Below are positions 13,806 to 57,910 of a DNA stretch of 64,000 nucleotides, one piece after another. Each line of letters starts with the position of its first letter. The first letter of the stretch is position 1. The notes under the pieces are model-generated. The model had not been told where the DNA came from, searched no databases, and was given only the letters and a program-made list of their open reading frames with translations. The stretch is from Jaenimonas drosophilae (taxonomy: Eukaryota; Euglenozoa; Kinetoplastea; Trypanosomatida; Trypanosomatidae): positions 1-64,000 of the forward strand of contig JASAON010001614.1 in assembly GCA_030849065.1 (NCBI GenBank). Direction: 5' to 3'. The position numbers and the translations under genes are program-made.

Positions 13806-15755
13806 ATGGCTGGACGCAGCGACCCTAGTGCATCCTACATCGGCTTCTACGCATTCGGTGGTATTGCAGGAATCTTGGCCATCGCCGCTATTATTTTTGT
13901 ATGCTACCATCGATGTAGGCGGCGCTACGATCATGAACGTGTGCCGGCCGATGTGGTGGCGGTGGAGATGCGTACGGAGGAGGCCAACCGTCCCGCACAA
14001 CGTCCACGACGCTCGCGCTATCCTGAAGCACAACCGAGCAATCATCATGTGGAGATCCTCGCCAAGCAGCCACCCGTGGCGGGCAACGTGATTTTGCGCG
14101 ATCGCGATGATCTTCTTCAGCTGAAGGGATGCTTGATGCAAGTGGAGGAGGCAGATGAGGATCGCACAGAAACAGGAAACGCAAGTCCTGCGCTCCCCAA
14201 CGCTTCCATGATGCAGTCCTTCGCTCTCGGCAACAGCTTCTTCTATCGCACCGGGGCCAACAGTTTAGAGTACAACAACAACAGCAACTCATATGAGCGT
14301 AGCCCCATGTACTCTGGTGGTGTTCGTGGCAGCTCTCCCGGAGTAGGATCTCCACATGGGGTGTGGGACTCTGCCGCAGGTGCGTTCCTACAACAACAAC
14401 AACAACAACAACAACTTCCTGGTCTGGAGCAGCCAGAGGAGGTGTGGCGGGTAGCCAGCAGTTTACCCATTCATTCACGTCAGATGCTCAACGCATCACC
14501 GAAACCGCCACGCGCTCCTCCTCCGGTTGCCGCCTCGGCAGATTTTATCTTCACAGTCGTGAATTCATCCGCAGTACAACCCGCCACCACCACCACCACA
14601 ACAACCACTCATGCAACAACCAACGTATCTGCTCCTTCTGCCACAGACGTGGCACATGGCCGCAGCCGCTTGCTCGTTCCTCTGCGGGAGGTCTCTGGCA
14701 TGGGAAGCTCACCACACAGCGGTGGCTCATCACCATCCAGCACACCACGTGATGCGTTTAACGTGCATGGATTATATGATGGTGGCTTGCTGCCCCCACT
14801 GAGCCCGCCGGTGCATGAGGTGCCACCCGCAAGCTGCCCACTTCCCCGTTTTCCTTCATCGCAACCAACAAGTGATGTGTTTCACGGGCCTTTTCATCAG
14901 CGAGAGGCAATCCATGCCACAACGCACTTCATGGAGGATCCGTTCAGCTCTCATGGCCTTCATCTGGACGTACCACGCAACACACAAACGCATTCACAAC
15001 AACATCAACCACCTGGTCATCAGGCGTTGAAGAGCAGCCATCATCATCATCATCATCACGGTGAGGTGCAACACAGAACACCCATCATAAACAAGAAGAA
15101 GAACAAAACTCGAAGACTGCGAGATATCAGCAAAGGAGGGTACCTCGTCTATGAACGTGAAGTGGCGGGGGAGGAGCCAGCGGATGGAGGTGTTGAAGCG
15201 CCTCCTGAAGAGGTGGTGGAGCTGCCTGATGGTCTTCGTGCAGCAGCACCAACACAAACGGGAAACAGCAACAACAACCAACGGAAAACCAAGAAGTTTT
15301 ATCTGCAAAAGGCATCTTCATTTGATGTGTACGGCCGCGGAGCCTACCTCGACGCTCCTACAGATCCTTCCATCCCTGAAGAAGCCTTCTATCCGCCAGA
15401 TCCATCATCATCATCATCATCATCATCGAATGCTTCACCGCCCTACTCACCCGTGAGTGTAAGTGCATCATCCATGGCCTCCTCGCGGCCTGCAGAGCCA
15501 CAATCATCCCCTCTACATCGCCCGCATCTCACAGATGCCGCTGGTGGCCCGCTCTCCACCACGGAAGAGGATGATCGCCGTGGTGCTGATGGTCTTCAAA
15601 ATGGCGGCACGCATGCTGCATCTCCAGCTTCTGGAGGTATGCCATCTGACTACACGCCCTTGTGCTCCCCTACTCCAGTAGTGCGAGATTATCTCTTTCC
15701 TGCTCCACATGATGATGATGTCGTAGATGAGGATGCAGCTGCTCTTCCGCTATGA
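13806..15755 (+). CDS. Array member 1: membrane-anchored A-B-C block protein
   Basis: A 649-residue protein at the left end of the paralog array and the only member with a membrane anchor. The N-terminus SASYIGFYAFGG leads into a hydrophobic span at about residues 14-33 (GIAGILAIAAIIFVCYH), followed at once by RCRRRYDHER, a basic stop-transfer that predicts a cytosolic tail. Block A is degenerate but visible (YPEAQPS at residue 72, then PVAGNVILRDRDD). Block B is reduced to KGGYLVYEREV near residue 443. Block C keeps ASSFDVYGRGAYLD (YGRG at about 509) but has lost RPLFRR. Poly-Gln, poly-Ser and poly-His tracts and Pro-rich linkers fill the rest. The function is unknown; it may bring the family's interaction to a membrane. 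Confidence 0.72.
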   Translation: MAGRSDPSASYIGFYAFGGIAGILAIAAIIFVCYHRCRRRYDHERVPADVVAVEMRTEEANRPAQRPRRSRYPEAQPSNHHVEILAKQPPVAGNVILRDRDDLLQLKGCLMQVEEADEDRTETGNASPALPNASMMQSFALGNSFFYRTGANSLEYNNNSNSYERSPMYSGGVRGSSPGVGSPHGVWDSAAGAFLQQQQQQQQLPGLEQPEEVWRVASSLPIHSRQMLNASPKPPRAPPPVAASADFIFTVVNSSAVQPATTTTTTTTHATTNVSAPSATDVAHGRSRLLVPLREVSGMGSSPHSGGSSPSSTPRDAFNVHGLYDGGLLPPLSPPVHEVPPASCPLPRFPSSQPTSDVFHGPFHQREAIHATTHFMEDPFSSHGLHLDVPRNTQTHSQQHQPPGHQALKSSHHHHHHHGEVQHRTPIINKKKNKTRRLRDISKGGYLVYEREVAGEEPADGGVEAPPEEVVELPDGLRAAAPTQTGNSNNNQRKTKKFYLQKASSFDVYGRGAYLDAPTDPSIPEEAFYPPDPSSSSSSSSNASPPYSPVSVSASSMASSRPAEPQSSPLHRPHLTDAAGGPLSTTEEDDRRGADGLQNGGTHAASPASGGMPSDYTPLCSPTPVVRDYLFPAPHDDDVVDEDAAALPL

Positions 15756-16887: not shown

Positions 16888-18363
16888 ATGCGGCGAACAG
16901 ATCGAGTTCGGCGATTAGGGCCTCCGGGGGAATCCAACGTGGAGAACATCCCCTCACTCTTCTACACCGGAAGCCGGAGACGAAACAACAACAACAACAA
17001 CAACAACAACAATAGAAGTAGTAGCGGCAACAGCAACAACCCCAACACACAACGCCGGCGAAGGCCCTCACTCACGACCACAGGAGAATACCCGGAAGCG
17101 TTGCCATCCTTACTCGCGCGCAAGTACAACGGGCCGGTGGAAGGTACTGCGGTGATTGATCAAGATTTGGAGGAGCGAGAGTTGGCTGAATCCACTTTTG
17201 AGATGGTTAGCCCGCCACCTCCCCTGACGGAGGAGGTGCTGATGAATATCATTGCGCAACAACAAACATTGGTCTCACCGATTCACTCACTTATTTTATC
17301 TCCCGTGGCGAGCTTAACGAGCATACCATCCATGTCGGATCATCGATTGGTGCCTGCACAGGCTTCTGTGGCGTTGGCTGAGGCACCTGGCGGTGCAGAT
17401 CACCTCTTGTTGCAGCCATCTGCATCTCTTCAACAGCATCAGCATCTTCACTCCGATGTGTTTGTTCCATCTCCACCTCAAATGAATGAAGATTTCTTCG
17501 TGGCTGCACCGCCATTGCCTTATGCACGTGGCCAACTTGGCATCTCACCAGACGCCCTGAGCGGAGGAGGTGCCGCACCACCTCAACGCGTTGTGAAGAC
17601 GGGCGGCTACGTTATATTTTCAGATGATTTCGTGGAAAACAACCCATCCACGACCATCGCCGCCGTCACCCAAGACTTCCGCGTCTTGTCTGGCTGCACA
17701 AGCCCCAACGCACAGACGCATCGAAGCGGAGATACTGCTGGTGCTGGTGCTGCTGGTGTTGTATCACCACGTGGAGTGGATGGACCTACACCACCTCTCT
17801 CACCTAGACCAGAGCAGCTTACCTCTCCAGCATCATCCGCATCACCGCAACAACAACAACAACAACAACAACAACAACGTCGATCTAGTGATCTTCCTCC
17901 TCGTCGTCGAACAGAAGAGGAGGAACAACAACATGCTGTGCGTGCTAAGGTACATAAATACATCAGCGAGGTGGAAGCACAGGAACGACCGCTCTTCCGC
18001 CGCATCAACTCTGAAAAGAAGTACGGCCGTGGCTTCTACTACTCCATGATGGAAGCAGAGGAGCATCTTCACGATGTGCAACAATCGGATGGCATCACCG
18101 GCCGAAGTACATGTTGCTCATCTGCATCATCCAGCAAACTTGTGCCAAAGACATGCACCTCGCCACCCGTGGAGCCAATGCGGGATGAGGAGGTGATGAA
18201 TGAGCACGCAGTCGTGGAGATGGAGGATGCGCAGCAACGCCACTGCCACACATCACCCATTAATGCACGCATCGTGCTACACAGCCCACGTCGAAGTCCG
18301 GGCGTTACCCCGAACGATGCGGCGTGGGATGGCGGTAACAACAATAACAAACATGAAGTTTGA
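16888..18363 (+). CDS. Array member 2: A-B-C block protein, well conserved
   Basis: A 491-residue member with all three blocks intact. Block A begins at residue 68 (EYPEALPSLL, then PVEGTAVID and the acidic stretch to FEMVSPPP). Block B begins at residue 239 (GGYVIFSDDFVENNPSTTIA then VTQDFRVLSG). Block C begins near residue 360 (YISEVEAQERPLFRRINS then KKYGRGFYYS). A poly-Asn run of AAC codons (about residues 32-42) precedes block A and a poly-Gln run of CAA codons lies between B and C. The linkers are Ser/Pro/His-rich and probably disordered; there is no signal peptide or membrane span. The longer frame starts at a TTG (16873); the ATG at 16888 is used. Confidence 0.8.
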   Translation: MRRTDRVRRLGPPGESNVENIPSLFYTGSRRRNNNNNNNNNNRSSSGNSNNPNTQRRRRPSLTTTGEYPEALPSLLARKYNGPVEGTAVIDQDLEERELAESTFEMVSPPPPLTEEVLMNIIAQQQTLVSPIHSLILSPVASLTSIPSMSDHRLVPAQASVALAEAPGGADHLLLQPSASLQQHQHLHSDVFVPSPPQMNEDFFVAAPPLPYARGQLGISPDALSGGGAAPPQRVVKTGGYVIFSDDFVENNPSTTIAAVTQDFRVLSGCTSPNAQTHRSGDTAGAGAAGVVSPRGVDGPTPPLSPRPEQLTSPASSASPQQQQQQQQQQRRSSDLPPRRRTEEEEQQHAVRAKVHKYISEVEAQERPLFRRINSEKKYGRGFYYSMMEAEEHLHDVQQSDGITGRSTCCSSASSSKLVPKTCTSPPVEPMRDEEVMNEHAVVEMEDAQQRHCHTSPINARIVLHSPRRSPGVTPNDAAWDGGNNNNKHEV

Positions 18364-19174
18364 TTGTACGAAATAGTGATGGGTGATGGATGATGTGGGG
18401 CGTGAAGAAGAACATCTGTTGCTTCTTGTTTGTAAGAGTACTTCTCTTGTCTTGACGGCTGTATGAGTGAGGGAGCACATCTCGTTTTTCATGCTGTTGT
18501 TGTTGTTGTTGAAAATGATTGATGGCATCACAGTGAGACTAACTTTCCGATACACTCTTTGCGCTAGAATGAATGCAGAGTGAGTGTTTACGTTCATGTG
18601 CGTACATCAACAAGACGCACACGAACACACCTACTCGTATATGCCGACGTTAGCAAAGCACGAACACGTTGGGCTGTTGGCGCTGCAGTGCTGGCATCTG
18701 CTCAAGTTGCCATGGTCCTACCTTCATCCACTTCCTATACACCGGATGCAAAAAAAAAAAAAACGAGTATTTTGTTTTTATATTATATTGTCTTACTCGC
18801 TGTGATGTGATGGAGCACTACGCGCACATTGTTTCTTCTTACTGGAGTTGGTTGCTACTTCTTGGCTCATGGCATCTGCCGCACAATCCGAGATTGGCCC
18901 ACTCCCATCCAGCGATCACCAACCATCATCATCATCATCATGTGTTGCGCACGAATGACTGTGCGTGCGAATTCGCTTTTGTTTTTGTTTTGTTTCTTGT
19001 CTTGTATCAAGTGCATTCCTCTCCATTGACCAAGGTAACATCAACAATACGAAGAACCCTTGTTGGCTCAACCTGTGCAATGTCTGCCACTGACACTCAT
19101 CATCATCATCTTCTTCATCTTCATCTTCTTCTTCATGTATGGTGTGTTAGACGTGTAGTGCTGATACACCACAC
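18364..19174. other. Intergenic region
   Basis: About 800 bases with GTT and CAT triplet runs, a poly-A run at 18751-18762 and pyrimidine tracts before 19175 (TCTTCTTCATCTTCATCTTCTTC at about 19108-19133). No gene is seen. Confidence 0.45.
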
Positions 19175-19963
19175 ATGATGTCTGACTCAGCATCACACAC
19201 CCTCTGGGTTCCCATTGCAGATGTTGATGCACTTCCCATGGCATTGCCAACGTCTTGTGAGACTACGTATACCGAAGCGGTTACTGGCACGGCATTGATT
19301 CGTTGTGCGTCATCACTGGATGATGTGCAAGACGCCGTGGAGATGATTGCGGCACGACCAACGCTACCACAAGTGTTGGGCTTACCAGATGAGGTACCAC
19401 TCTTCACGTGGCTCGATTGCGATGAATCGATGAGTGCGCTGAGTATCCTGCCATCCTCCACATCACCACGTCGCTCCATCTCTCACGCTCCATCATGCGC
19501 ATCCCCCAACACTCCTTCATCTCTACCTCCTTGCACACTTCATCATCTTCATCATGTACCAACACCTCCTCCTCTCTCCCCTGAGGAGGTGTTGATGAAT
19601 GGCGGCGGTGTGATTTTTACGGATGAATTCGTGCAGCAACATCCCAACAGCAGCATCGCCTCCCTCACGCGTGACTTCGCCACCATGTCAATGCACACAA
19701 GCAACATGAGCGCAACATCGAACTCCGTCTCGGTGGAGGACGGGGGCGGTGAGGCTCCCGTTGTGGCTAGCACATGCAACACACCACGCATGCGCAATTA
19801 TCTGCACGAGGTGTTTTGCCATCAACGCCCATTGTTTAGACGTGTGGCCTCATCACGACGTTATGGCAGAGGTTGGTACTGGACCTCTGAAGATGCTCCT
19901 GCAACAACACCAACTCCCTCTGAGCAGTACCCATCTTGTATAACGTTTTCACAGTCATCATGA
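19175..19963 (+). CDS. Array member 3: short A-B-C block protein
   Basis: The shortest member, 262 residues, in effect the three blocks with little linker. Block A starts near residue 19 (LPMALPTSCETTYTEAVTGT then ALIR). Block B starts at residue 143 (GGGVIFTDEFVQQHPNSSIA then SLTRDFATM). Block C starts near residue 208 (YLHEVFCHQRPLFRRVASSR then RYGRGWYWT). Because the linkers are almost absent, this gene best defines the minimal unit of the family. The start may be the ATG at 19175 or the adjacent ATG at 19178. No membrane span or signal peptide is visible. Confidence 0.78.
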   Translation: MMSDSASHTLWVPIADVDALPMALPTSCETTYTEAVTGTALIRCASSLDDVQDAVEMIAARPTLPQVLGLPDEVPLFTWLDCDESMSALSILPSSTSPRRSISHAPSCASPNTPSSLPPCTLHHLHHVPTPPPLSPEEVLMNGGGVIFTDEFVQQHPNSSIASLTRDFATMSMHTSNMSATSNSVSVEDGGGEAPVVASTCNTPRMRNYLHEVFCHQRPLFRRVASSRRYGRGWYWTSEDAPATTPTPSEQYPSCITFSQSS

Positions 19964-22120: not shown

Positions 22121-23362
22121 ATGAATGCGCATCAACGTGAGCGCATGGAGCAGCGCCGCCAACGTCATCTGGAACAGATTCGCCACCTCAGCGGCAGCAC
22201 CACACCGATGCCAACCGCACCAAGCTCACGCACCACCACACCACATCAAAGCCAGCCACGCCATCACAGCCGTGGAGATTCACACCTCTCAGACGCGCAG
22301 GAGCGTGGGCGCGCCATGATTGAGCAGATGCAGCGCAACCCTGGAAGCGTCCCAAACTCCTTCACGGTGCCGTCCGAGTTGATGGGTGAATTCCCCGTCG
22401 CTCTGCCAACACGTCTCGGGAAACATCTTCAGGCGGTGGTGGAGGGCACCGCCATCATTGATCGCAGCAACGTGGATGATCATTTCGAGGATGTACTCGA
22501 GGTGGTGAGTATCCCACGCTCCATGACAGAGGAACGAGCCAATCCTCTCGGGCCTGATCTTGACCTGTACGGCGACCACGCTTCTGCGCAACCTCGATTG
22601 TCTGTGAGTTACGCCAGCGTAGAAGAAATGCGGCGTGAATCATCTCTGCACGTTTTTGATCTCATTCCGTCCGACGAAGACAACAACGTGGATGATGATA
22701 ATGATGTTGTTGGTACATCTATGAACCTGCGACGATCTCCCGGCGTTCAGCGCACCGTTTCCATTAGCAGCGTCTCTGAGGGAGGAGGTGGCGGCCATCG
22801 GGTACTCATCTCGCCCACCGCGATGCAACATGAACCCCCACGCCACGTGCTCCGCCATGGTGGTGGAGTCATCTTCTCCGACCAATTCATTCACTCTCAC
22901 CCGGATTCAGGCATCGCCAACGTCACCCACGATTTTCAGCTCTCCGCGGCGAGCTACAGCCAGAGCGAGGGGAATCCTCTTGTGGCGGAGCTCTCCACGC
23001 CATCGGCCACACCCTCTCTCACCCCACCACGCCACCCGCATGAGTACATCAACCAGGTTGAGACTCAACAACGGCCGCTCTTCCGCCGCGTTGATTCAAA
23101 GCGCATGTACGGCCGCGGTGTGTACCACTCCGCCGCCGATCATGGAGGAAGTAGTGAATCCATCGATGGCCACCCACTTCGCGATCGCCGCGAGAGTGAT
23201 AAGAGCGATGGCTGCACCGATGATATATCGCAGGAGTGCTATTTGCGATCAGCCACCACACCCATTCCAGATGAACGTCGTAGTGTGGCAGGAACACCGC
23301 GCAAGGCCGTTAACGGCCATTCAATTGGCTGCCTAGCGCAAACTTCAACGGTAAAGACGTGA
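22121..23362 (+). CDS. Array member 4: A-B-C block protein, well conserved
   Basis: A 413-residue member. A charged N-terminus (MNAHQRERMEQRRQRHLEQI) probably forms a short helix. It is followed by an extra block shared only with member 5: GRAMIEQMQRNPGSVPNSFTVPSEL here, against GRAMIERMQ...PNAFTVPIEL there. Block A is at residue 91 (FPVALPTRL, then VEGTAIIDR), block B at 247 (GGGVIFSDQFIHSHPDSGIA, then VTHDF) and block C near 308 (YINQVETQQRPLFRRVDSKR then MYGRGVYHS). An Asp/Asn run and Ser/Pro linkers lie between A and B. The frame is open to 22040 only from a non-ATG codon; the ATG at 22121 follows a C-rich tract and CCAGG, a plausible splice acceptor. Confidence 0.8.
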   Translation: MNAHQRERMEQRRQRHLEQIRHLSGSTTPMPTAPSSRTTTPHQSQPRHHSRGDSHLSDAQERGRAMIEQMQRNPGSVPNSFTVPSELMGEFPVALPTRLGKHLQAVVEGTAIIDRSNVDDHFEDVLEVVSIPRSMTEERANPLGPDLDLYGDHASAQPRLSVSYASVEEMRRESSLHVFDLIPSDEDNNVDDDNDVVGTSMNLRRSPGVQRTVSISSVSEGGGGGHRVLISPTAMQHEPPRHVLRHGGGVIFSDQFIHSHPDSGIANVTHDFQLSAASYSQSEGNPLVAELSTPSATPSLTPPRHPHEYINQVETQQRPLFRRVDSKRMYGRGVYHSAADHGGSSESIDGHPLRDRRESDKSDGCTDDISQECYLRSATTPIPDERRSVAGTPRKAVNGHSIGCLAQTSTVKT

Positions 23363-26569: not shown

Positions 26570-27724
26570 ATGCAATCACGCCGATCGCCCCGCTCCGCCG
26601 TCACACGGGCAGGACCTCCCACTGCACAACGCTCATCCAACCCGCTTCATCAAACACCGGTACGCAGCGCACCCGCCAACGTGGCCGCATCACCATCGCC
26701 TCAACGCAGCGTTCTCACCTCACCTCCAGCACGACCACCACCCATCACCGCATTACGTACGCCAAACATGCGAAGTTCATCCAACAACAACAACAACAAC
26801 ACCGGCCAACATCATCTTCGCAGTCCCAACACACAAGGATCTCCTCGCAGTGCGGCATCTCCCGCCGCCCTGAGTCAAGGCCGTGCCATGATTGAACGCA
26901 TGCAGCATCGGCCAAGTGAGATGCCCAACGCCTTCACGGTTCCCATTGAGCTCGTGCATCTCTATCCAGAGGCGTTGAGGTCGCCCCTCTCCGACAAGTA
27001 TTCAGAACCTGTGATTGGCACCGCCGTGATTGATCGTGTGCCAACCGAAGGACCCCTCGAGGATGTGCTGGAGATGGTCAGCCCAATGCCATCCACAACG
27101 ATTGAGTCCATGCGCCAACTGAGCCGCAAGCTTTCGATGCGCTCACCGCTGCTCTCCCCAACTGGCTCCATTGCCGCCGCCTCCCTCGGTGGTGGTGCTG
27201 ACGGCGATGAAGATGATGTGGTTACGGCGGATGTTTCGTCAACGGCGTCGCACGTGTATCGCCTGCCCAGCGCCTCAGAATACAGCACCGCATCGTTTGG
27301 CACCGTAGGGCGTGTCGTGGTAGCACCTGAGGCGATGCAAACAACCAAAGCTCCACGCCATGTACTACGAAAAGGCGGCTTCATCATCTTTTCAGATGAT
27401 TTTGTGGCACAGAATCCTGAGACAGACTTTGCTGCCGTTTCAAATGACTTTAAGGTGTTGTCTGGGGGATCACCATCCACCTCACCAACACAACCAAACT
27501 TCTCCGCAACTCCGCCCAACAACAACAACACCAACACCAACAATCCGAACAACTTTAATCTGGAGGAAGATATGGCCATTCGAACACAACTTCACTCGTA
27601 CATCACGGAGGTGGAAGCACAACAACGCCCGCTGTTTCGTCGCGTGAGCTCCGCACGCAAGTATGGCCGAGGCTTGTACTACTCCTCCAACGCCAGCTTC
27701 TCAGGCTCGGACCATGAGCAGTGA
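26570..27724 (+). CDS. Array member 5: A-B-C block protein, well conserved
   Basis: A 384-residue member and the closest relative of member 4. A long basic Ser/Pro/Arg N-terminus with a poly-Asn run of AAC codons leads to GRAMIERMQHRPSEMPNAFT and VPIEL, which is shared with 22121. Block A is at residue 132 (YPEALRSPLSDKYSEPVIGT then AVIDR and LEMVSP), block B at 269 (GGFIIFSDDFVAQNPETDFA then AVSNDFKVLSG) and block C near 345 (YITEVEAQQRPLFRRVSSAR then KYGRGLYYS). The tail is short and ends SDHEQ. The ATG at 26570 lies two bases after an AG that ends a T-rich tract, so either the leader is tiny or a later Met (residue 67) is used. Confidence 0.8.
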   Translation: MQSRRSPRSAVTRAGPPTAQRSSNPLHQTPVRSAPANVAASPSPQRSVLTSPPARPPPITALRTPNMRSSSNNNNNNTGQHHLRSPNTQGSPRSAASPAALSQGRAMIERMQHRPSEMPNAFTVPIELVHLYPEALRSPLSDKYSEPVIGTAVIDRVPTEGPLEDVLEMVSPMPSTTIESMRQLSRKLSMRSPLLSPTGSIAAASLGGGADGDEDDVVTADVSSTASHVYRLPSASEYSTASFGTVGRVVVAPEAMQTTKAPRHVLRKGGFIIFSDDFVAQNPETDFAAVSNDFKVLSGGSPSTSPTQPNFSATPPNNNNTNTNNPNNFNLEEDMAIRTQLHSYITEVEAQQRPLFRRVSSARKYGRGLYYSSNASFSGSDHEQ

Positions 27725-30047: not shown

Positions 30048-31343
30048 ATGCTGCCACAACCACTGCAGAGTGTTTCTAGCGCACTCTCACTGGACGAAGA
30101 GCGCGTGCGCCCCTCACTTCGATCTGTTTTCCAGCCCTTTCATCGTCCGGGACCACCACGTACTACCAACACAACATCATCCTTCACACAAACACATGCC
30201 ACGCATTCACTTAACAACAACAACAACAACAATAGCAGCGTCACCTCACCCGTGGTGATGGAGCCCAGCGGTGATTATCATCACTTCTTCTCCGTCGATG
30301 CCGCACCTCCCGCCACCACCGCCCCACTCTTTCGCGTGGATGAGGCGCCACAAGTTGCGTTGAGCTCCATGTTGGAGCTCACCCCGATGATCATCACGTG
30401 GGTGCCAAAAGGTATTCCCGTGGAGGAGATGTTGTTGCATCAACTAAATCCGGTGGATGGCATCGCCATTGTAGATCGTCATGATCCGCAATATTTTGGC
30501 GAGAACTCACTCGTGGAGCTCATCGCACCAACTCAACCAACACCGCCAACATCGTCTGTTCAGCGCGCACGTCGAGCATCAACGGCAACAACAGCGGCGG
30601 GCAGACGTGATTCAGACTTCGCCGAAGCTGGGTTAAGTGGATGTTCCATGTTGGCGGAGGGAGATGGTCATGGTAGCTCGGCACATGCCGCATCACCCCC
30701 ACTTCACACACGCACAACACCTCCCACAGCAACAGCAATTGGTGCTGCGGCACTATCACCTCAGCCGGCGATGATGAATGTTCTGCTGCCATCCTTGACG
30801 AGCCCAAACACCGCTGCCTCCATGGCCAACCACCACATCACCAATACGAGAGGCCAACGCCATCGACGGAGTAGCTTTCCTTCCGTCATGAGCAGCAACA
30901 CCATCAACATTCACAACAACAACAACGACAACAACGTGGATGAGTGCAGATGGCGTCCATGTGGCTTGCAACAAACACGTCGAGCGCTTAAACGTGGCGG
31001 ATGCATCATCTTCACCGATGATTTTGTAGAAGCACATCCTGAAACATGTGTGGCCGCCATCACACAGGCGTGCCAAGCTCATCCACGATTGGCACCTACA
31101 CCATCTCTTGCCATTCAAACGGTAGCGCCGCGTGTGAATGATGATGATGATGATGTAGATGGCGTGATGCATGTACCTGCTCTCGATTGTATTCGTGATG
31201 TGGAGGCACAACGCCGCCCACTCTTTCGCCGCATTCCATCATTTGCAAAGTATGGCCGCGGCGTATACCTCACACGACGCGAGGAGGACCGTTTTGGGCT
31301 ACAACACGGCGATTCAGCGCGACGCTGTGTTTCATCCAAGTGA
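30048..31343 (+). CDS. Array member 6: A-B-C block protein
   Basis: A 431-residue member. The N-terminus is Ser/Thr/His-rich with a poly-Asn run. Block A lacks YPEALP but keeps LNPVDGIAIVDRHDPQY and VELIAPTQP near residues 135-163. Block B is at residue 317 (GGCIIFTDDFVEAHPETCVA then AITQAC), without the usual DF after it. Block C begins near residue 384 (CIRDVEAQRRPLFRRIPSFA then KYGRGVYLT). A second pyrimidine tract with TAG lies 20 bases upstream of the ATG at 30048. An internal ATG at 30258 (MEPSGDYHHFF) is an alternative start that would drop the low-complexity leader. Confidence 0.78.
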   Translation: MLPQPLQSVSSALSLDEERVRPSLRSVFQPFHRPGPPRTTNTTSSFTQTHATHSLNNNNNNNSSVTSPVVMEPSGDYHHFFSVDAAPPATTAPLFRVDEAPQVALSSMLELTPMIITWVPKGIPVEEMLLHQLNPVDGIAIVDRHDPQYFGENSLVELIAPTQPTPPTSSVQRARRASTATTAAGRRDSDFAEAGLSGCSMLAEGDGHGSSAHAASPPLHTRTTPPTATAIGAAALSPQPAMMNVLLPSLTSPNTAASMANHHITNTRGQRHRRSSFPSVMSSNTINIHNNNNDNNVDECRWRPCGLQQTRRALKRGGCIIFTDDFVEAHPETCVAAITQACQAHPRLAPTPSLAIQTVAPRVNDDDDDVDGVMHVPALDCIRDVEAQRRPLFRRIPSFAKYGRGVYLTRREEDRFGLQHGDSARRCVSSK

Positions 31344-40702: not shown

Positions 40703-41941
40703 ATGTCAAGACAACAACGCAGAGATCCGTCGGCACGTAGAGTGCAGGATTTCGCCAACTTTCCCAACCAAGAAAACGTGGTGCTCCGCGGGGTCTACGG
40801 AGGCCCACAACTTCCACGTTTGCGTAGGTCTGATTTGCCCGATGCGGCGCTTGCACATGGTGATGTGTACCGATTGGAAACAACGGGTGTTGCCATCATG
40901 GACCGGAACTGGTCAGTGGAGGAGCATCAGCTCGAGGTGGTGGCACCGGATGCGTGGCTCGATATCGTTGAGAACTTTAAGCCACGTTTTTCATCACCCA
41001 CACGAAGTATTGTCTCAAGCATGTACTCCACAACACATCAAAGTCGTGGTGAGGTGGAGTACTCCACACGTTATGATTCCACGGGCACACACACCCACTC
41101 GTCTGTGTCTCAGCGCGCCCCACGTATGCGGCAGGTATCATCATACCAACGAACGCCACACCAAGGCAGTTCATCCATCCGACGATCCTTCAACGGCATG
41201 ATTGGTGACTATGATGATGATGACGATGATTTTGATGATGATTATGAAGAGAGCAACGATGGTGAAGAAGATGATGAGCTTATCACGCTTATTTGCGATC
41301 GAGCCGCGAAGGATGTTAATGATGCCATCAGACGCGGTGGATGTTTCGTCTTCACGGATGGCTACCTCGCCAGCCACCCCGATGGCGACATCAGCCGAAT
41401 AACAGAGCTCTACGAACGCTTCCACAATGATTGGTATGGAGATCAAGATGCCATCATCTCACTCATATCCAATCGTGAAGGTACACCACAACGCACAGAG
41501 ATGTTGTTGCGTGAGGCGATGCAGCTCAAGCGGCCCATCTTCCGTATCAAGCGAGCAGAAAAGGTCTATGGTGCAGCCGCGTATAGCCCACTAATGCCTC
41601 CTACACAAGATGAGGTTATGGTGGCATCACCACAAGAAGTAGAAGAGCTGCCAGATCATGAAGTTGTGCCACAAGAAGACCAGGATCAGTTTGAGGAGCA
41701 CGGCGATGTGCATCAACGACGTTTACGTGATCGCAACAAGAGGGCTGCTCAACTCAAGGATTCACGTCTGTACGCGAGGAACTCCATCTTCCAGGCGTTG
41801 AACGATTTGGATCTCTCAAGCTCCAGCGTTGATCTCAGTGATGTAACGGTGGGTGTGGTGAGCTCCGTCAGCGCACTCGACCTGCACAGCCCTCATGACG
41901 TGAATGAGCCACCCGTGAGGGGCTTCTCATCCGCATCATAG
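40703..41941 (+). CDS. Array member 10: divergent A-B-C block protein
   Basis: A 412-residue member at the right end of the main block. Block A is weak (DLPDAALAHGDVYRLETTGV then AIMDRNW and LEVVAPDAW, near residues 47-90). Block B is at residue 212 (GGCFVFTDGYLASHPDGDIS then RITELYERF). Block C has decayed to AMQLKRPIFRIKRAEKVYGA from about residue 272: the second Arg, the Ser and the YGRG core are changed. An Asp/Glu-rich stretch precedes block B. The C-terminal 110 residues (from QEVEELPDHEVVPQ) are charged and may form a coiled coil (HQRRLRDRNKRAAQLKDSRL); no other member has this tail. Loss of key residues suggests a different or relaxed role. Confidence 0.72.
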   Translation: MSRQQRRDPSARRVQDFANFPNQENVVLRGVYGGPQLPRLRRSDLPDAALAHGDVYRLETTGVAIMDRNWSVEEHQLEVVAPDAWLDIVENFKPRFSSPTRSIVSSMYSTTHQSRGEVEYSTRYDSTGTHTHSSVSQRAPRMRQVSSYQRTPHQGSSSIRRSFNGMIGDYDDDDDDFDDDYEESNDGEEDDELITLICDRAAKDVNDAIRRGGCFVFTDGYLASHPDGDISRITELYERFHNDWYGDQDAIISLISNREGTPQRTEMLLREAMQLKRPIFRIKRAEKVYGAAAYSPLMPPTQDEVMVASPQEVEELPDHEVVPQEDQDQFEEHGDVHQRRLRDRNKRAAQLKDSRLYARNSIFQALNDLDLSSSSVDLSDVTVGVVSSVSALDLHSPHDVNEPPVRGFSSAS

Positions 41942-43977: not shown

Positions 43978-46900
43978 ATGCCCCAATCACCGGCAAAGAT
44001 GCCGAGATCCGCGTCACCCGTGACACGGGATGCGAGCGAGGACCACATTTTTTTCGTAGATGAGCCCAGTGGTGAGCGCTTCAAGCTTCTCTTTCATGGT
44101 GACATCAACCGTTTGAGCGTATCCAAGATTCGGCGGTATTTGCGCCTGAATCGCATCAACGATGAAAATGATTTGTGCTTTGAGGGGCGCGTGTTGTCGG
44201 ATGATATGCGCGGTGGTGATTTTGGTTTGAAGCGTGGAGCTGTGCTCAAGCTACGCAGACCATCCCCGGCGTCTGAACCACACCAGCATCATCATCATCA
44301 GCAGCCACAGCAACACAACAACAAGAAGCAGCAACAGAACAAGAGCAAGAAGAAACATGATAGGGAGGCTCCAGCACACCACAACGGCCCCAGCTCCTAC
44401 GAAGATCGTCTGCTGCTCAACAATGAATCCTACGCACTACGTTTTCACATTGAGCGCGTCAAGGATGTCAAGGAAGATGCACGCAACAACAACAACAAGG
44501 ATGGTACATCTGGCATGAAGCTGCCCTATCTCAGTGGCAGCCACTCACCATCTCCCATGGGACCTACGTCGTCAGAAACAAGCAGCGACGATACGCCAGC
44601 CAACAACAAACGCCAAAAGCTGCTGATTAACAAGGCTTCATCACCAGCCTTCTCTACCGTTCTCACAGATCCATCTGTTGTAGCTCCATATGGACGTGGT
44701 GAGCCCGACCACACACGTCCAGCGCCGATTGCACGTGGATGTGGAGCTCCACCGCCAGGGGGAAATGTGAGCAGGAACAACATCAGCACCACATCACCCC
44801 CAGAGGAAATAGTGATGAGCCCAGGTTCTTCGCACTACATCCAGAAGCTGCAGGAGATGCTTCGCCAAGCAGAAGCACTCAGCTATACCAATGCCACCAC
44901 CACCAACAACAACAACAACAAGATGTGCTCTACCACCAATCTTCAGCCACCTGCCGCACAGTACTCCTCACCGCAGTATGAGATGATGCCTCCACGAAGC
45001 ATGGGCCTCGCTCCCGATTCACTTCGCTCGACGCCTGCGATTCAAGCAAGTGCGCCACCAGCCGCTGGCGCAACCCGACCAACATCGAACCACAACAACA
45101 CCACCAACCAACAAGTGATGGAGGAGATGCGTGAGGTGCGTGCGGCGGTGGCGGATATGACGGGCATGCTCATGGAGATGAAGAAGCGCGAGGCGCGACA
45201 ACCATCCCCAAGCTCCTCCACCACTGACAGCAGCATCAGCACACCAAACGAATCGCATCGTAGAAAAGATGGTAGAAGTCACGTTCATCACAATCATGTG
45301 CCACCTCCACCACCTCCACCACCTCCGATGAAGACCCCTCGTCGTGGTGAGCGCACTCCGCGTAGTGATCGGCGCCATCCACCCATGGAGCCCGCTGAGG
45401 ATCTCACACAACGTTTGCAGCAGGTTCTTCCACGAGCAGAAGTGGTGTTGCAACGTCTTCTCGGCGCACTGCGTGTGGCGGCATCAGAGCCCGCATCGGC
45501 ACGTCGCTCGGAAGTCGCCTCCGTGGAACCGCACGCCGTGAAGGAGCTCATCATCTCACCATCGCAATCCGTCTTCGTGGACGAGGCAACGGCGCCAACA
45601 GGGAGAGCGATGGGTGAGGAGCTACGCAGCATGCACGGCCTTCTCAAGGAGTTGGTGGCGATGGTGGAGCGTGGCGGTGGCGGTGGCAACGGCATGGTGA
45701 ATGGCCGCCTTCCTTCGCATCGCTCACCCACACATCATTCTCCTTCCAAGAAGGACAATGTTGGTGCACGTGCTGCCACCCCACTCGCACAAGATCTTCA
45801 ACGCGTGATGTCCTACACGGAACATGCCTTGGCGGATTTGGTTCAGGTTCTACACTCTCAGCGTTCTCAACCTGATGTTGCAGCGCTAACCTCTCCACGC
45901 CACGACCGCCAACATGCATCGCCAGACTCCATCCATCTACACTCACCGAGGCATCCGTCTAGCCATCATCATCATCATGGTGATGATGTGGTGCCGGAAA
46001 ACACGCACACGCATCGCTCGCACAGCGTGCGCCGGCCATCTCCTCTTCGTAGTGGATCTTCGCATCATCACCATCATCAATCCCAGCCACATCATGAGCA
46101 GCAACATGAAGCACATCCTCCTCCTTCCAGTAGCCGTCATGATGTGCCACACACGAAGGAGGACGTTATTCTGAAGGAGGTCCACGACATACATCACGTG
46201 TTGCGTAGTTTGGTGAAGATGATTCATAAGGACAAGGATGAAAAAGAAGTGAAGCCCATTTCACCCACACGCGTTCAATCCCAGCGCTCACCAAGTCCTG
46301 AAAACATCTCCGCCTCACCCAACTCTTCCAGCCCGCGCTCCACCGACACCCGACGAACGCGCCCGCCACCGTCCATCTCGCCCAACGATATCCTCGGCCA
46401 AGAGGGCCGGCACCTCCGCGACACGGTACAGCGCGCGGAGCAGGTGATTCATCGTCTTTTGCACCTCGCACAAGGCCAGCCCAACACATCTGCATCCCTC
46501 ACCACCGACAGCAACAACAACAACAACTTAGAACGCAAGCACACCAAACGCTTTGATCAAGCACAACTTCCCTCTTCTGGTCCAGGTGTCGGGGAGGATT
46601 CCTTCGCCACGACGGGCTCCGAATCTGCGGTGATTCAGCAGCATGTGGTGGAGCACCTCGGCAGCGTGCAGCACATGGTGGAGCAGCTCTCTCAGGTGAT
46701 GCGATCCCAGCGTAGCGTGCATGACCCATCGCCTGCCGCGGAGGGTGCCATGCCAGCATCTCACCAGTTTGATGTTCTCCCGCTGCCACCAACCTCCATT
46801 GGTGGTGATGGGGATCTTGGCTCCGCGCAACTTGCCAACAACAACAACAACCCTAAACCCACTTCACAACAACAACAACAACAGCAACAACGCTCACAGG

Positions 46901-47523
46901 ATGGTGGTGTTCCGCCTGTTGTGGTTCAGAAACGTCTGAAGGACATCACTGCGGAAGTGGAGGAGGTCCTGAATGGGCTCACGCAACTTGTGCATGTGTT
47001 AGAGGAGCGTGGTATTTCACCCAACGCCAACACACAGAGTGGGAGCTTACAGCAGAATCGTCCAGTACCACTGGCGCGTGGAAGTGGGCGTGATCCGCTG
47101 CCATCGTCTTCAAACGTGGAGGAACAACCGCAACGCTTGGCGATGCGCGAACACCTTTACACGGAGCTCCCGTCACAAGCCGTGGAGGTACCGCCAATGG
47201 CGGAGTTGTATCCAGGCCAATCTGCCACACTGCAGCTCTCCACGCGCTATGATGAAGAGGCACAACCCTATCGCTATGCCCATCAACAACCCACAATGAG
47301 CTCCAGTCGCTCACCACGAAGCCAACCATCTCCACATTCATCTCGGCAGGTTTCTGGCCGAGGATCGCTGGCCTCACATCCCTTGAATAACAACAACAAC
47401 AACTCCGCACGTGGTAGCTCTAAACAGCTGTACAATCATGCACTCTATATGCTGGGTGATGTAGAGAGTATTCTGGGTGATTTGCAGAGCATCATGGGCC
47501 CTGAAGCTCAGCAACGAATGTAG
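43978..47523 (+). CDS. Large protein with ubiquitin-like N-terminus and repeated helical modules
   Basis: A 1,181-residue protein. Residues about 23-95 have the ubiquitin-like pattern: beta-strand HIFFVDEPSGERFKLLFH, helix RLSVSKIRRYLRLNRI, then LCFEGRVLSDDMRGGDFGLK and RGAVLKLRR. There is no terminal Gly-Gly, so the domain is not processed like ubiquitin. Low-complexity regions (Asn, Gln, His, Pro) separate short amphipathic helices with a common look: LPRAEVVLQRLLGALR, MHGLLKELVAMVE, YTEHALADLVQVLHSQ, EVHDIHHVLRSLVKMI, TVQRAEQVIHRLLHLA, LGSVQHMVEQLSQVM, EVEEVLNGLTQLVHVLEERG and MLGDVESILGDLQSIMG. These probably form coiled coils or helix bundles. The same ubiquitin-like domain occurs at 48251 and similar helices at 50155. 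It may be a structural or adaptor protein; function unknown. The start at the ATG 43978 directly precedes the conserved domain. Confidence 0.75.
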   Translation: MPQSPAKMPRSASPVTRDASEDHIFFVDEPSGERFKLLFHGDINRLSVSKIRRYLRLNRINDENDLCFEGRVLSDDMRGGDFGLKRGAVLKLRRPSPASEPHQHHHHQQPQQHNNKKQQQNKSKKKHDREAPAHHNGPSSYEDRLLLNNESYALRFHIERVKDVKEDARNNNNKDGTSGMKLPYLSGSHSPSPMGPTSSETSSDDTPANNKRQKLLINKASSPAFSTVLTDPSVVAPYGRGEPDHTRPAPIARGCGAPPPGGNVSRNNISTTSPPEEIVMSPGSSHYIQKLQEMLRQAEALSYTNATTTNNNNNKMCSTTNLQPPAAQYSSPQYEMMPPRSMGLAPDSLRSTPAIQASAPPAAGATRPTSNHNNTTNQQVMEEMREVRAAVADMTGMLMEMKKREARQPSPSSSTTDSSISTPNESHRRKDGRSHVHHNHVPPPPPPPPPMKTPRRGERTPRSDRRHPPMEPAEDLTQRLQQVLPRAEVVLQRLLGALRVAASEPASARRSEVASVEPHAVKELIISPSQSVFVDEATAPTGRAMGEELRSMHGLLKELVAMVERGGGGGNGMVNGRLPSHRSPTHHSPSKKDNVGARAATPLAQDLQRVMSYTEHALADLVQVLHSQRSQPDVAALTSPRHDRQHASPDSIHLHSPRHPSSHHHHHGDDVVPENTHTHRSHSVRRPSPLRSGSSHHHHHQSQPHHEQQHEAHPPPSSSRHDVPHTKEDVILKEVHDIHHVLRSLVKMIHKDKDEKEVKPISPTRVQSQRSPSPENISASPNSSSPRSTDTRRTRPPPSISPNDILGQEGRHLRDTVQRAEQVIHRLLHLAQGQPNTSASLTTDSNNNNNLERKHTKRFDQAQLPSSGPGVGEDSFATTGSESAVIQQHVVEHLGSVQHMVEQLSQVMRSQRSVHDPSPAAEGAMPASHQFDVLPLPPTSIGGDGDLGSAQLANNNNNPKPTSQQQQQQQQRSQDGGVPPVVVQKRLKDITAEVEEVLNGLTQLVHVLEERGISPNANTQSGSLQQNRPVPLARGSGRDPLPSSSNVEEQPQRLAMREHLYTELPSQAVEVPPMAELYPGQSATLQLSTRYDEEAQPYRYAHQQPTMSSSRSPRSQPSPHSSRQVSGRGSLASHPLNNNNNNSARGSSKQLYNHALYMLGDVESILGDLQSIMGPEAQQRM

Positions 47524-48250: not shown

Positions 48251-49039
48251 ATGCCCCCGGTACAGATCTTCTTCATTGATCGCCCGTACACCAAAACACG
48301 TTTTGAAGTTGTTGTGCAAGCCTACTTGCCAACACTCAGTGTATCCAAGATACGGCGCTACCTCCGCCTACGTCATGTGTCGGATGCGGAGCAGCTCACC
48401 TACAATGGGCAGCTTCTCATGGAAACGATGAAGGGGGAAGACTTTGATCTCAAGCAAGGATGTGTGCTTTATCTTGTTCCGCCCACTCCAGTATCCTCGC
48501 CACGACCAACAAGTGGTGAAACACGACCGAGTACATCTTCCTCACAGGAGGAGGATGCATCGCCACACAACCCACACGGTGAGGCGGCATCCATCTTGCA
48601 GGTATCTCCGCGAAGAGTGCCAGAAGTAGAGGAAGCTCCACAACCTCCGCCAAAAAAGAAGAAGAAGAAGAAAAAGAAGACACCTGAACTGAAGGAAGAT
48701 GTAGTATCCGCACCATCACCACCACCGCCACCACCACCTCCTCCTCCACAACAGCAACAGCAAGCACAACCACCTGCACATCTTTCTGTTCCTACGTTCA
48801 TCTCCACTCGTACAGTTGCGGTGCAGCGAGATGCTCCCCCTCCCCCACCCACAATTGAATACTACGAGTGCTCTATTTGCTCTGAAGATGATGATGAGGT
48901 GGATGCCGCACTCATTGATTTGCAACAACGTGTGCTTCACGTCCTCGAACGTATCGATATTGTGGAGGATCAGCTGAAGGACCTCAACTCAGATAACGAA
49001 GAGGAGGTTCATGAGCAACACCCACAACGTGAGCCATGA
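48251..49039 (+). CDS. Ubiquitin-like-domain protein with Pro-rich linker and coiled-coil tail
   Basis: A 262-residue paralog of the 43978 protein. Residues about 3-75 match its ubiquitin-like domain: VQIFFIDRPYTKTRFEVVV, then SVSKIRRYLRLRHVSDAEQL and TYNGQLLMETMKGEDFDLKQ and GCVLYLVPP. The stretch LSVSKIRRYLRL is identical in both proteins although the DNA differs at several codon positions. A Lys run (KKKKKKKKKT, about residues 136-145) and a poly-Pro/Gln run follow. The end is a helical segment, IDLQQRVLHVLERIDIVEDQ then LKDLNSDNEEE, comparable to a single helical module of the larger paralog. There is no Gly-Gly terminus. It is placed between its larger paralog and the true ubiquitin fusion gene. 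Function unknown. Confidence 0.75.
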   Translation: MPPVQIFFIDRPYTKTRFEVVVQAYLPTLSVSKIRRYLRLRHVSDAEQLTYNGQLLMETMKGEDFDLKQGCVLYLVPPTPVSSPRPTSGETRPSTSSSQEEDASPHNPHGEAASILQVSPRRVPEVEEAPQPPPKKKKKKKKKTPELKEDVVSAPSPPPPPPPPPPQQQQQAQPPAHLSVPTFISTRTVAVQRDAPPPPPTIEYYECSICSEDDDEVDAALIDLQQRVLHVLERIDIVEDQLKDLNSDNEEEVHEQHPQREP

Positions 49040-49256: not shown

Positions 49257-49710
<454 letters not shown>

Positions 49711-53728: not shown

Positions 53729-54733
53729 ATGATACCACCTGCACGTAGCACGGTACAACGTGTTGTTCGCAATACACAACGCACCACCACTCCACGCACA
53801 AGCACCACCTCCCATCGACATCGCCGACGTGCAGAGTACCCTGAAGCACTCCCATCACTGCTGCCGGAATGCTACAAGGGTACGGCAAACGGCATTGCGG
53901 TGATTGGACCCGGAGAGGGCCCCACAGGCTCGTGGGAGGCCACCTTGGAGCTCGTGGACCCTCTGCGTGAGGAGGTTGAGCAAGACACCGCGGCGGTTTC
54001 ATCCACGTTGTTATCTCCCAACATCAGCCAGTCCGCTGGATCTATCCCACGCTCCCCACCACCCACTCTGCGTTCAGCTGGCCGGTTGTCTGCCCCACGC
54101 CATGATGGCACCCCGGGACAACCAACAACCCTCTCCGTCACGAGCCCGGTCTCAAACCGCCGTGTGCGTAGCCCCGGGGAGGCACTACGTCAGGGTGGTT
54201 GCATCGTCTTCACAGACTCTTACATACACGCCAACCCACACACTCCGGTGGCGGCCATGGTGCAGAACTTCAATCTTTTGCGTGTTGGAAGCCCTCCACC
54301 CTCGCAGAGCTCCAGTCCTGCCGTTCGTACGGTGGATTCCTTCCCCACACCCATCTCCTCCCCACCAAATAACACCATCACCAGCACCAACAACACCAGC
54401 CAACCTGTGGTGGAGACCTCCGGCGATCTCATTGCACAGTACCTGAGTGAGGTGAAGGAACAACAACGGCCCGTCTTTGTACGTCGTGACTCACCCACCG
54501 TCTACGGCAGAGGCTACTACTACGCACCACCAAGCGGAACCCCACAATCGGCCAACACATCCCCGCGATCTCTCAGCAGCCCAGACGCAGTGCTTTCGGC
54601 GCGGCGAGGGGCACGTCGCCGTGGCTCCTCCCCGCCGCCTGTGCTGCATTCAAAGGCAGGATCGTACTCTGACTACCCATCACCACCCATAAATCATTCT
54701 GGCCCACGTCGAAACACACACGCTATCTACTAG
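53729..54733 (+). CDS. Array member 11: A-B-C block protein beyond the ubiquitin-like cluster
   Basis: A 334-residue member lying 11.8 kb right of the main block. Block A is at residue 37 (EYPEALPSLLPECYKGTANG then IAVIG and LELVDP), close to that of member 2. Block B is at residue 156 (GGCIVFTDSYIHANPHTPVA then AMVQNFNLLR). Block C begins near residue 235 (YLSEVKEQQRPVFVRRDSPT then VYGRGYYYA); the pair FRR has become FVRR but the Ser and YGRG remain. The N-terminus is Thr/Arg-rich, and the linkers and tail are Ser/Pro-rich. The ATG at 53729 is used. Its better conservation than members 10 and 12 shows that the cluster between 44.0 and 52.7 kb was inserted into, or arose within, an existing array. 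Confidence 0.78.
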   Translation: MIPPARSTVQRVVRNTQRTTTPRTSTTSHRHRRRAEYPEALPSLLPECYKGTANGIAVIGPGEGPTGSWEATLELVDPLREEVEQDTAAVSSTLLSPNISQSAGSIPRSPPPTLRSAGRLSAPRHDGTPGQPTTLSVTSPVSNRRVRSPGEALRQGGCIVFTDSYIHANPHTPVAAMVQNFNLLRVGSPPPSQSSSPAVRTVDSFPTPISSPPNNTITSTNNTSQPVVETSGDLIAQYLSEVKEQQRPVFVRRDSPTVYGRGYYYAPPSGTPQSANTSPRSLSSPDAVLSARRGARRRGSSPPPVLHSKAGSYSDYPSPPINHSGPRRNTHAIY

Positions 54734-56350: not shown

Positions 56351-57910
56351 ATGGAGGCCATCCTATCTGATGAAGCCGCCGCCAACCCTGACGGCCTCCA
56401 CCCAGAAGCACTCATCTCTGACCTCACACTTCTGCACCCCACGACCGTCATGGGAACCGCCATCGTGGATAACGCCCATCGCAAGATTGCCAACCGTCTT
56501 CTTCGCCGTGGAATGTTGGAGCTCGTCAGCACCATGTCAAAGGCACCAATCTTCTCGGTGCTCCTTCTGCCTCCCGATGCCTGCCTTAGCCCTCAACACG
56601 CTCTACCTCTTCCAGCGCCACAAGATAAGCAGAACCTCCCGCGGCCCTTTTCGGAAGCCTGCCTTGCCACCCAGCCCACAGCCGCCTTCTTTCCCAGCAC
56701 GATCTCTCCACGTGGAGCTGCCCGCCGCTTCTCCGTGAATGACGTTCATGGCGTTGGTTTCCCCACACGCGCTCCATCCATGTCCACCTTTCCATCGTCA
56801 GGAACTTCTCTCTGCGCCGCACCCACGGCATCAGCGGCACCTCGGCAGCCAGACCCACTCACCCCCGCCTCCACGACCACTGCACCACCGACTGGATTTG
56901 CACCCTTATCCTTGGATTTGCATCGCATCTCACGCGAGGATCTCTTCTTGCAATCACCCCAGATGCCGTTGCGCAGCCCTGCGCTCAGTGGCACCGATGG
57001 CTTCCCTCGCTTCAACACCGTGATGAGCATGGAAAATCTCGTCGATGATCGAGTGGAGGAGTCATTGGCTGCCCAACAAAGGGAAGGATTCATTGCCATG
57101 CAGCACCTGAATCACAATACCTCCACTGACCGTAGAGATGGAGGAGCCGCGGGCACAAGCCAACCAACCAGCACACCCCCTGCTACTGAACCTTTTCAAG
57201 GTAGCATGCTGAGCTTAACCCCGCAAATGCGCATGGGGATGTCATTTGAAAGTTTTGATCTTCTTCGTCAATCCGTCTCTGTGATGGATGCACGTGGGAG
57301 TACCTGCAGAGAGCGTCCCAGTGCGGCCATGAAGCAGGGTGGATGCATCATCTTCACGGATGACTACTATGACTACAACAACCGATCTCCTGTTAGTCTC
57401 ATTGCGGAGGAATATCGGCGCTATCATTCCGAACGTAAGATCGATCGGAGCTACCTGAACAACGTCAAGGCCAAATCGTACATCACGAAAGAGATAAAAT
57501 CCTTATACGTGGAGGGTCAGATTGGTATACGACCCATCTTTCGTCGACGACCGCCCGAGGATGTGTATGGTAGCTCGGAGTACATTCCAGCACAACACCC
57601 TACCTTGGTTGCCAATGACGCTCACGTGCTTTCAGACTCCACCGACCACAGGAGTCAAGATCCATCTCCTGCCAACAGCTCCGAAGAGCAAAGTGAGGAG
57701 GACGGCCTACGCCACCCACAATCTGACGTGAATCAATCTTCTAGTCGCCAGACCCTATCTAGATCCACGAAGGATTCCGTCAGGAGTGCCTTGTATCGCG
57801 TCCGGCATGCTCGTTCAGAATCCGAAGATGGAAGCATCACGGATGATGCTCCAACCGATGCACCCCTGGTTGCCCTTTGCCACACACCAGAATCGCCTTT
57901 ACTCCGGTGA
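56351..57910 (+). CDS. Array member 12: divergent A-B-C block protein
   Basis: A 519-residue member at the right end of the array. Block A is close to the N-terminus, at residue 17 (HPEALISDLTLLHPTTVMGT then AIVDNAH and LELVST). Block B is at residue 330 (GGCIIFTDDYYDYNNRSPVS then LIAEEYRRY). Block C begins near residue 375 (YITKEIKSLYVEGQIGIRPI then FRRRPPEDVYGSSEYIP): there is an insertion before RPIFRR, the Ser is Pro and YGRG is YGSS. The linkers contain less triplet repeat than in other members, and codon use is more mixed. The tail is Ser/Asp/Glu-rich (NSSEEQSEED and similar). The ATG at 56351 lies eight bases after a TGTAG. Confidence 0.75.
   Translation: MEAILSDEAAANPDGLHPEALISDLTLLHPTTVMGTAIVDNAHRKIANRLLRRGMLELVSTMSKAPIFSVLLLPPDACLSPQHALPLPAPQDKQNLPRPFSEACLATQPTAAFFPSTISPRGAARRFSVNDVHGVGFPTRAPSMSTFPSSGTSLCAAPTASAAPRQPDPLTPASTTTAPPTGFAPLSLDLHRISREDLFLQSPQMPLRSPALSGTDGFPRFNTVMSMENLVDDRVEESLAAQQREGFIAMQHLNHNTSTDRRDGGAAGTSQPTSTPPATEPFQGSMLSLTPQMRMGMSFESFDLLRQSVSVMDARGSTCRERPSAAMKQGGCIIFTDDYYDYNNRSPVSLIAEEYRRYHSERKIDRSYLNNVKAKSYITKEIKSLYVEGQIGIRPIFRRRPPEDVYGSSEYIPAQHPTLVANDAHVLSDSTDHRSQDPSPANSSEEQSEEDGLRHPQSDVNQSSSRQTLSRSTKDSVRSALYRVRHARSESEDGSITDDAPTDAPLVALCHTPESPLLR

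What the first reader, a model, noticed from the sequence alone, without database searches (positions are those of the whole stretch)
13806..57910. Twelve-gene same-strand array of an unrecognised three-block protein family
Twelve neighbouring genes share three short blocks in fixed order despite lengths from 262 to 763 residues: A ([FY]PEALPS...GTAVID...LELVSP), B (GG-x-[IV]-[IV]-F-[ST]-D-x-[FY]) and C (RPLFRR-x2-S-x3-YGRG-x-Y). The linkers are low-complexity and unalignable. I can name no known family with this arrangement. Short motifs that survive while linkers change suggest that each block contacts a partner, possibly one scaffold or enzyme for all members. An array of diverged (not identical) copies points to diversification and not to gene dosage.
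Basis: seen in the sequence. Interest (0 to 1): 0.92.

Follow-up and report, generated by a model that had tools for sequence, protein, structure and literature searches.

The report
Diverged tandem family with shared blocks
A single-celled flagellate (a kinetoplastid) carries a row of old, strongly diverged gene copies whose proteins keep the same short conserved stretches between fast-changing linkers; no relative turned up in the databases searched, so it looks like an undescribed protein family worth testing for a shared binding partner.

Summary
Eleven of the twelve genes share blocks B and C far above shuffled sequence; block A is clear in nine of twelve. The twelfth, 13806-15755, is a membrane protein sharing only block C, marginally. 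The genome is kinetoplastid. A second array on two other contigs preserves eight members in the same order. Between the copies, blocks are 75% identical with 7 gap columns and dN/dS 0.13; linkers are 46% identical with 508 gap columns and dN/dS 0.29. So the genes code, the blocks are under purifying selection, and diversification predates the array duplication. No convincing Pfam, NCBIfam or PDB relative was found, nor any in the large protein database, which does hold trypanosomatid relatives of a neighbouring gene. Block C ends in [RK]xxSxxxYGRGxY; two membrane proteins 30 kb downstream carry a similar element without A or B, suggesting a portable docking motif. Most likely reading: a lineage-specific family of largely disordered adaptors with a common partner.

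The parts
13806..15755 (+). 649 aa, N-terminal transmembrane segment; shares block C only (15252-15356); resemblance to blocks A and B not above shuffles
   Evidence: array-2 homologue C118:10267-12060
16888..18363 (+). member, 491 aa; A 17077-17220, B 17575-17679, C 17944-18048
   Evidence: array-2 partner C118:6762-8216
19175..19963 (+). shortest member, 262 aa; A 19220-19363, B 19574-19678, C 19784-19888
   Evidence: partner C118:5252-6073
22121..23362 (+). member, 413 aa; A 22379-22522, B 22832-22936, C 23030-23134
   Evidence: partner C118:1604-2800
26570..27724 (+). member, 384 aa; A 26951-27094, B 27347-27451, C 27584-27688
   Evidence: no partner found (would lie between contigs C118 and C121)
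30048..31343 (+). member, 431 aa; A 30393-30536, B 30969-31073, C 31173-31277
   Evidence: no partner found
32788..33834 (+). member, 348 aa; A 32908-33051, B 33343-33447, C 33619-33723
   Evidence: partner C121:1450-2433
35121..37412 (+). longest member, 763 aa; B 36375-36479, C 37080-37184; A-like stretch 35613-35756 not above shuffles
   Evidence: partner C121:3727-6081
38673..39509 (+). member, 278 aa from the inner ATG (the finding's frame starts at 38451); A 38766-38909, B 39054-39158, C 39285-39389
   Evidence: partner C121:7657-8454
40703..41941 (+). member, 412 aa; B 41309-41413, C 41489-41593 (YGAAAY); A-like stretch 40820-40963 weak
   Evidence: partner C121:9556-10761
53729..54733 (+). 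member, 334 aa; A 53825-53968, B 54167-54271, C 54425-54529
   Evidence: no array-2 partner found
56351..57910 (+). member, 519 aa; A 56387-56530, B 57311-57415, C 57488-57592 (YGSSEY)
   Evidence: no array-2 partner found
43978..47523 (+). interleaved gene, not a member: 1181 aa, ubiquitin-like N-terminus and KASS...YGRG stretch
   Evidence: partner C121:12722-16420
48251..49039 (+). interleaved gene, not a member: 262 aa, same ubiquitin-like N-terminus

Best explanation
The array encodes a lineage-specific kinetoplastid family of largely disordered adaptor proteins, made by old tandem duplications and later copied as a block. Shown: real coding genes, shared B and C blocks, stronger purifying selection on blocks than on linkers, and divergence older than the block duplication. 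Inferred: the blocks are the constant binding surface for one common partner; block C (about RPLFRRxxSxxxYGRGxY) is a docking peptide whose serine fits a basophilic-kinase site (consensus recalled) and may switch binding; the fast-changing linkers and tails give each paralogue its own target or regulation. The C-terminal half of block C may also act alone on membrane-anchored proteins such as 13806.
For: Blocks B and C in 11 of 12 against 2400 shuffles. Eight array-2 homologues in the same order; blocks 75% identical, 7 gap columns, dN/dS 0.13; linkers 46%, 508 gap columns, dN/dS 0.29. Each of eight copies closest to its positional partner. Pyrimidine tract upstream of 11 of 12 starts, against 6 of 12 on the antisense strand. 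[RK]xxSxxxYG element in 17 of 20 family rows and in two downstream membrane proteins, 0 of 300 shuffles. No relative in the protein search although trypanosomatids are in that database.
Against: No partner, localisation, expression or structure is known. dS is near saturation, so the dN/dS values are rough. The serine of block C is absent from 40703, 56351 and C121:9556. The link to the downstream membrane proteins was seen after the fact; with a looser pattern 5 of 300 shuffles reach the same count, and 87572 lacks the second Gly (YGRADY). Lineage specificity rests on word-seeded searches only.
Confidence: 0.4

Rival explanations
1. A, B and C form one small folded domain, and the long linkers are disordered loops inserted into it. 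The proteins then bind through one ordinary surface and the separate 'blocks' only reflect loop length.
For: Blocks are more hydrophobic than linkers (34% against 22% FILVMWYC), contain strand-like runs (TAVID, CIIFTD) and invariant glycines, and keep a fixed order.
Against: A-B spacing runs from 83 to 351 residues and B-C from 62 to 252 in the 20 rows; 13806 keeps C without a detectable A or B; part of C recurs in two other proteins.
Confidence: 0.3
2. The family is not lineage-specific but a widespread kinetoplastid family annotated as hypothetical proteins, diverged beyond the sensitivity of the searches made here.
For: The protein search needs shared 5-residue words and capped one query at 8000 candidates; no kinetoplastid genome collection could be searched; only about 84 block columns are informative.
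Against: The database holds Leishmania, Novymonas, Strigomonas and Diplonema proteins, yet the B-C region of 22121 found nothing among 66 candidates at E up to 10.
Confidence: 0.3
3. C118 and C121 are not a second array of this genome but contigs of a related organism in the same assembly; the comparison is then between species.
For: Both contigs are short (21.8 and 22.8 kb); GC3 is higher there in 8 of 8 pairs, once by only 0.003; synonymous change is near saturation.
Against: CNX1 and PEMT beside array 1 and a phosphatase gene inside array 2 have one copy each, three of three genes tested.
Confidence: 0.15
4. Block C is a VCP/Cdc48-binding site of the SHP type, and the proteins are VCP cofactors or adaptors.
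For: A Leishmania p47 SHP1 site reads FYGRGQRL (PMC7403338, passages); Y-G-x-G-x-x-hydrophobic fits 15 of 20 rows; ubiquitin-like proteins sit inside the array and a cullin family beside array 2.
Against: The Phe or Trp of the published consensus is Tyr in 20 of 20 rows; 5 of 20 rows fail the pattern; it explains neither RPLFRR nor the invariant second Tyr.
Confidence: 0.08

Closest known systems
Tandem gene arrays of Trypanosoma brucei (PMC1855330; abstract and passages seen)
   Same: Same-strand arrays of paralogues, some with divergent members that keep orthology
   Different: There concerted evolution is described as pervasive; here each of eight copies keeps its one-to-one partner and members are strongly diverged
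SHP motif of VCP/p97 cofactors (PMC7403338; passages seen)
   Same: G-x-G followed by a hydrophobic residue, next to an aromatic residue; Leishmania p47 has FYGRGQRL
   Different: Tyr instead of the defining Phe/Trp in 20 of 20 rows, extra invariant Tyr, longer conserved context RPLFRRxxS
Kinetoplastid cullin client adaptors (PMC12816148; passages seen)
   Same: Lineage-specific, expanded adaptor families serving a common scaffold: the way of working proposed here
   Different: Those described carry F-box, BTB, DCAF, kelch or Skp1-like parts; no Pfam domain was found here

Membership tests
Any Pfam-A family | score above the curated cut-off | tested here: not met
   12 of 12 proteins scanned; five weak matches in three proteins, E 0.17 or worse, all under cut-off
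Any NCBIfam family | significant match in several members | tested here: not met
   12 members scanned; two families each match one member, E 0.0092 and 0.038
A protein of solved structure | profile match in the PDB | tested here: not met
   whole profile: none at E up to 1. Single blocks: C best E 0.32, A 0.27; B 0.0027 to a designed barrel through a repeated EALKKGG, judged chance
SHP (VCP-binding) motif | Phe or Trp before GxG | tested here: not met
   Tyr in 20 of 20 rows
SHP (VCP-binding) motif | G-x-G-x-x-hydrophobic | tested here: inconclusive
   15 of 20 rows
SHP (VCP-binding) motif | binding to the VCP N domain | not testable with these tools
   structure prediction off; no binding assay
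Tandem array under concerted evolution | copies within an array more alike than partners in the other array | tested here: not met
   8 of 8 closest to the positional partner; on the tree six of eight pairs form a clade, five strongly supported, two unresolved
Ubiquitin-like proteins (43978, 48251; interleaved, not members) | ubiquitin-fold N-terminus | tested here: inconclusive
   two-sequence profile matches polyubiquitin at E 2.7e-4; no Pfam match
Kinetoplastid genome | paraflagellar rod protein family (PF05149) | tested here: met
   four matches over cut-off, 0 of 14 control genomes

The most novel reading that the evidence does not exclude
One lineage-specific module has grown at this locus: a portable motif ([RK]xxSxxxYGRGxY) carried by three protein classes, namely three-block adaptors, single-pass membrane proteins and, in a looser form (KASS...YGRG), ubiquitin-like proteins, all reporting to one hub of the ubiquitin, VCP or cullin system, and duplicated together as a block next to an amplified cullin family.
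Probability: 0.08. Interest if true: 0.8.

Novelty: new variant of a known kind. Interest (0 to 1): 0.5.

Why it matters
If the family is as confined as the searches suggest, it is a trypanosomatid tandem array that has escaped homogenisation, with a second array copy as a natural control separating constrained from free sequence. It turns a cluster of hypothetical proteins into a testable question: what binds RPLFRRxxSxxxYGRGxY, and why are about a dozen variants of everything around it kept?

Tried and rejected
Dosage array: rejected, members strongly diverged. Chance motifs or non-coding frames: rejected. Two haplotypes of one array: rejected, block identity 67-86% and synonymous change near saturation. 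Second species in the assembly: disfavoured, not excluded. Overall homology of the two downstream membrane proteins to the family: not shown; of 15 shuffle-tested comparisons (200 shuffles each) two stood out, 87572 with the C118 homologue of 13806 (z 4.1, 0 of 200) and 89363 with 13806 (z 3.4, 1 of 200); the alignment printed for the latter runs through low-complexity linker and not the motif, that of the former was not printed. Block-C link to the ubiquitin-like proteins: only suggestive; 56, 2, 87 and 23 of 2000 shuffles reached the score in four comparisons, one of them aligning elsewhere, and the stretch is not unusually conserved between the two copies. PDB matches to single blocks: judged chance. 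A first DNA pattern search for block A found nothing.
Full report
WHAT IS THERE. The window is the first 64 kb of a 99.8-kb contig (C323) in an 18.8-Mb, 370-contig assembly. Four matches to the paraflagellar rod family, found in 0 of 14 control genomes, make it kinetoplastid. The PEMT gene at 58981 matches an unnamed public sequence best (59%) and, among named ones, Leishmania martiniquensis (56%; 120 of 656 matches listed). An aldo-keto reductase farther along the contig matches PDB entry 4f40 best (that this is Leishmania major is recalled). The species was not identified. Flanking genes are ordinary: a WD40 protein, a symplekin-like protein, a MoeA/MoCF fusion, PEMT and an M1-type peptidase.

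THE BLOCKS. The twelve frames are on the + strand. Leave-one-out tests against 2400 shuffled proteins find block B in 11 of 12, block C in 12 of 12 (13806 marginal, 10.4 bits against 8.3) and block A clearly in 9 of 12. A first version with a shorter A block was weaker for A. Scanning the window, the rest of the contig and the pieces of four other contigs held then, the best match outside the family was E 0.04. Whole-genome searches with five members found family matches only on C323, C118 and C121, apart from one match on C368 to the A-B linker of 56351 (E 3.2e-5, two stops inside), which I leave unexplained and suspect to be compositional. Such counts are lower bounds, as the tool says.

A SECOND ARRAY. 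C118 (minus strand) carries homologues of 13806, 16888, 19175 and 22121, and C121 those of 32788, 35121, 38451 and 40703, in the same order. Partners of 26570 and 30048 would fall between the contigs; none was found for 53729 or 56351. Each array-2 copy is closest to its positional partner, 8 of 8; on the tree six of eight pairs form a clade (five strongly supported) and two are unresolved. Pooled over the eight pairs, blocks are 75% identical (862 codons, 7 gap columns, dN/dS 0.13) and linkers 46% (2453 codons, 508 gap columns, dN/dS 0.29); dS is near saturation, so the ratios are rough. The genes are therefore translated, the blocks constrained, and the members distinct before the array was copied. 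CNX1, PEMT and a phosphatase gene inside array 2 have one copy each, which favours a block duplication in one genome. Against it, GC3 is higher in array 2 in 8 of 8 pairs, once by 0.003 only, so a contaminating relative is not excluded.

EXPRESSION SIGNS. A pyrimidine tract of at least 15 bases lies within 600 bases upstream of 11 of 12 starts (not 22121), on the antisense strand in 6 of 12; for eight other genes of the window the counts are 7 and 1. This fits trans-splicing but is no proof of transcription. Spacers are 0.8-3.2 kb, apart from 11.8 kb between 40703 and 53729.

THE TWELFTH GENE AND A PORTABLE MOTIF. 13806 has a hydrophobic segment of transmembrane strength (mean 2.39; the other window members reach at most 1.55). 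Two further proteins with such a segment (2.47 and 2.18) lie 30 kb downstream, C323:87572-88888 and 89363-90646, and contain RVASPELYGRADY and RLNSTVVYGHGDY. The pattern [ST]xxxYG[RHKQ][GA]xY occurs twice in 37 non-family ORFs and in none of 300 shuffles; a looser pattern is reached by 5 of 300. A matching element is in 17 of 20 family rows. The 21 ORFs of four 10-kb stretches elsewhere had none. This was noticed after the fact and is a lead.

NEIGHBOURS. 43978 and 48251 share a ubiquitin-like N-terminus, with homologues on C121, C193 and C253. 43978 and its C121 partner carry KASS...YGRG. YG[RH]G occurs 3 times in 70 non-family ORFs against 0.27 expected (0 of 200 shuffles), but two of the three are that partner pair, and the alignment to 13806 is only suggestive.

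HOW IT PROBABLY WORKS. Shown: coding, constrained blocks, freer linkers, old divergence. Inferred: the blocks form a constant interaction surface and the linkers individualise each copy. Block C combines RPLFRR, a serine in 17 of 20 rows in a basophilic-kinase context (consensus recalled) and YGRGxY, which suggests a docking peptide that phosphorylation could switch. Whether A and B are separate motifs or strands of one split domain is open, since structure prediction was off.

COMPARISON. Pfam gave only matches under cut-off, NCBIfam two single-member weak matches, the PDB none for the whole profile and only matches judged chance for single blocks. The large protein search found nothing with the whole profile among 8000 candidates (E up to 0.1) or with the B-C region of 22121 among 66 candidates (E up to 10); the database does hold Leishmania, Novymonas, Strigomonas and Diplonema. 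It finds only relatives sharing 5-residue words. A full-text search for four block strings found no paper, and listings on trypanosomatid families showed none that names this one (titles and abstract starts only). In T. brucei arrays concerted evolution is pervasive (PMC1855330, abstract and passages); here it is not seen. The Leishmania p47 site FYGRGQRL (PMC7403338, passages) resembles the end of block C, but the defining Phe/Trp is Tyr in 20 of 20 rows, so membership is not claimed. Seen by passages only: PMC3916237, PMC10441713, PMC12816148, PMC10903960; by outline: PMC8472099.

VERDICT. A real, diverged and apparently undescribed protein family with a shared block architecture. It is ordinary in being a lineage-specific gene family, unusual in having escaped homogenisation and in a motif that recurs in membrane proteins nearby. 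The mechanism is inference.

Noticed in passing
contig C323 beyond the window, 87572-88888 and 89363-90646 (in L043): Two proteins with an N-terminal hydrophobic segment carry RxxSxxxYG[RH][GA]xY, like the end of block C, without a convincing overall resemblance to the family.
   Followed up: partly
window 43978-47523 and 48251-49039; C121:12722-16420 and 17057 onward; C193; C253: A family of proteins with a ubiquitin-like N-terminus, one on C193 with two such domains in 3064 aa, two of them inside each array.
   Followed up: partly
C118:13220-16648 and 17268 onward; also C15, C16, C229, C91: An amplified family with a cullin neddylation domain (PF10557, E 1.4e-12 in the one scanned), 19 matches on five contigs, two copies in tandem beside array 2.
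   Followed up: partly
C118:8597-9700: A HAD-type phosphatase gene, single copy in the genome, sits inside array 2 between the homologues of 13806 and 16888; none stands there in array 1.
   Followed up: yes
window 50155-52745: Two long frames meet near a single N at 51005, so the gene model there is unsure.
   Followed up: no
C368:20629-20907: A match to the A-B linker of 56351 (E 3.2e-5, 36% identity, two stops inside), unexplained.
   Followed up: no
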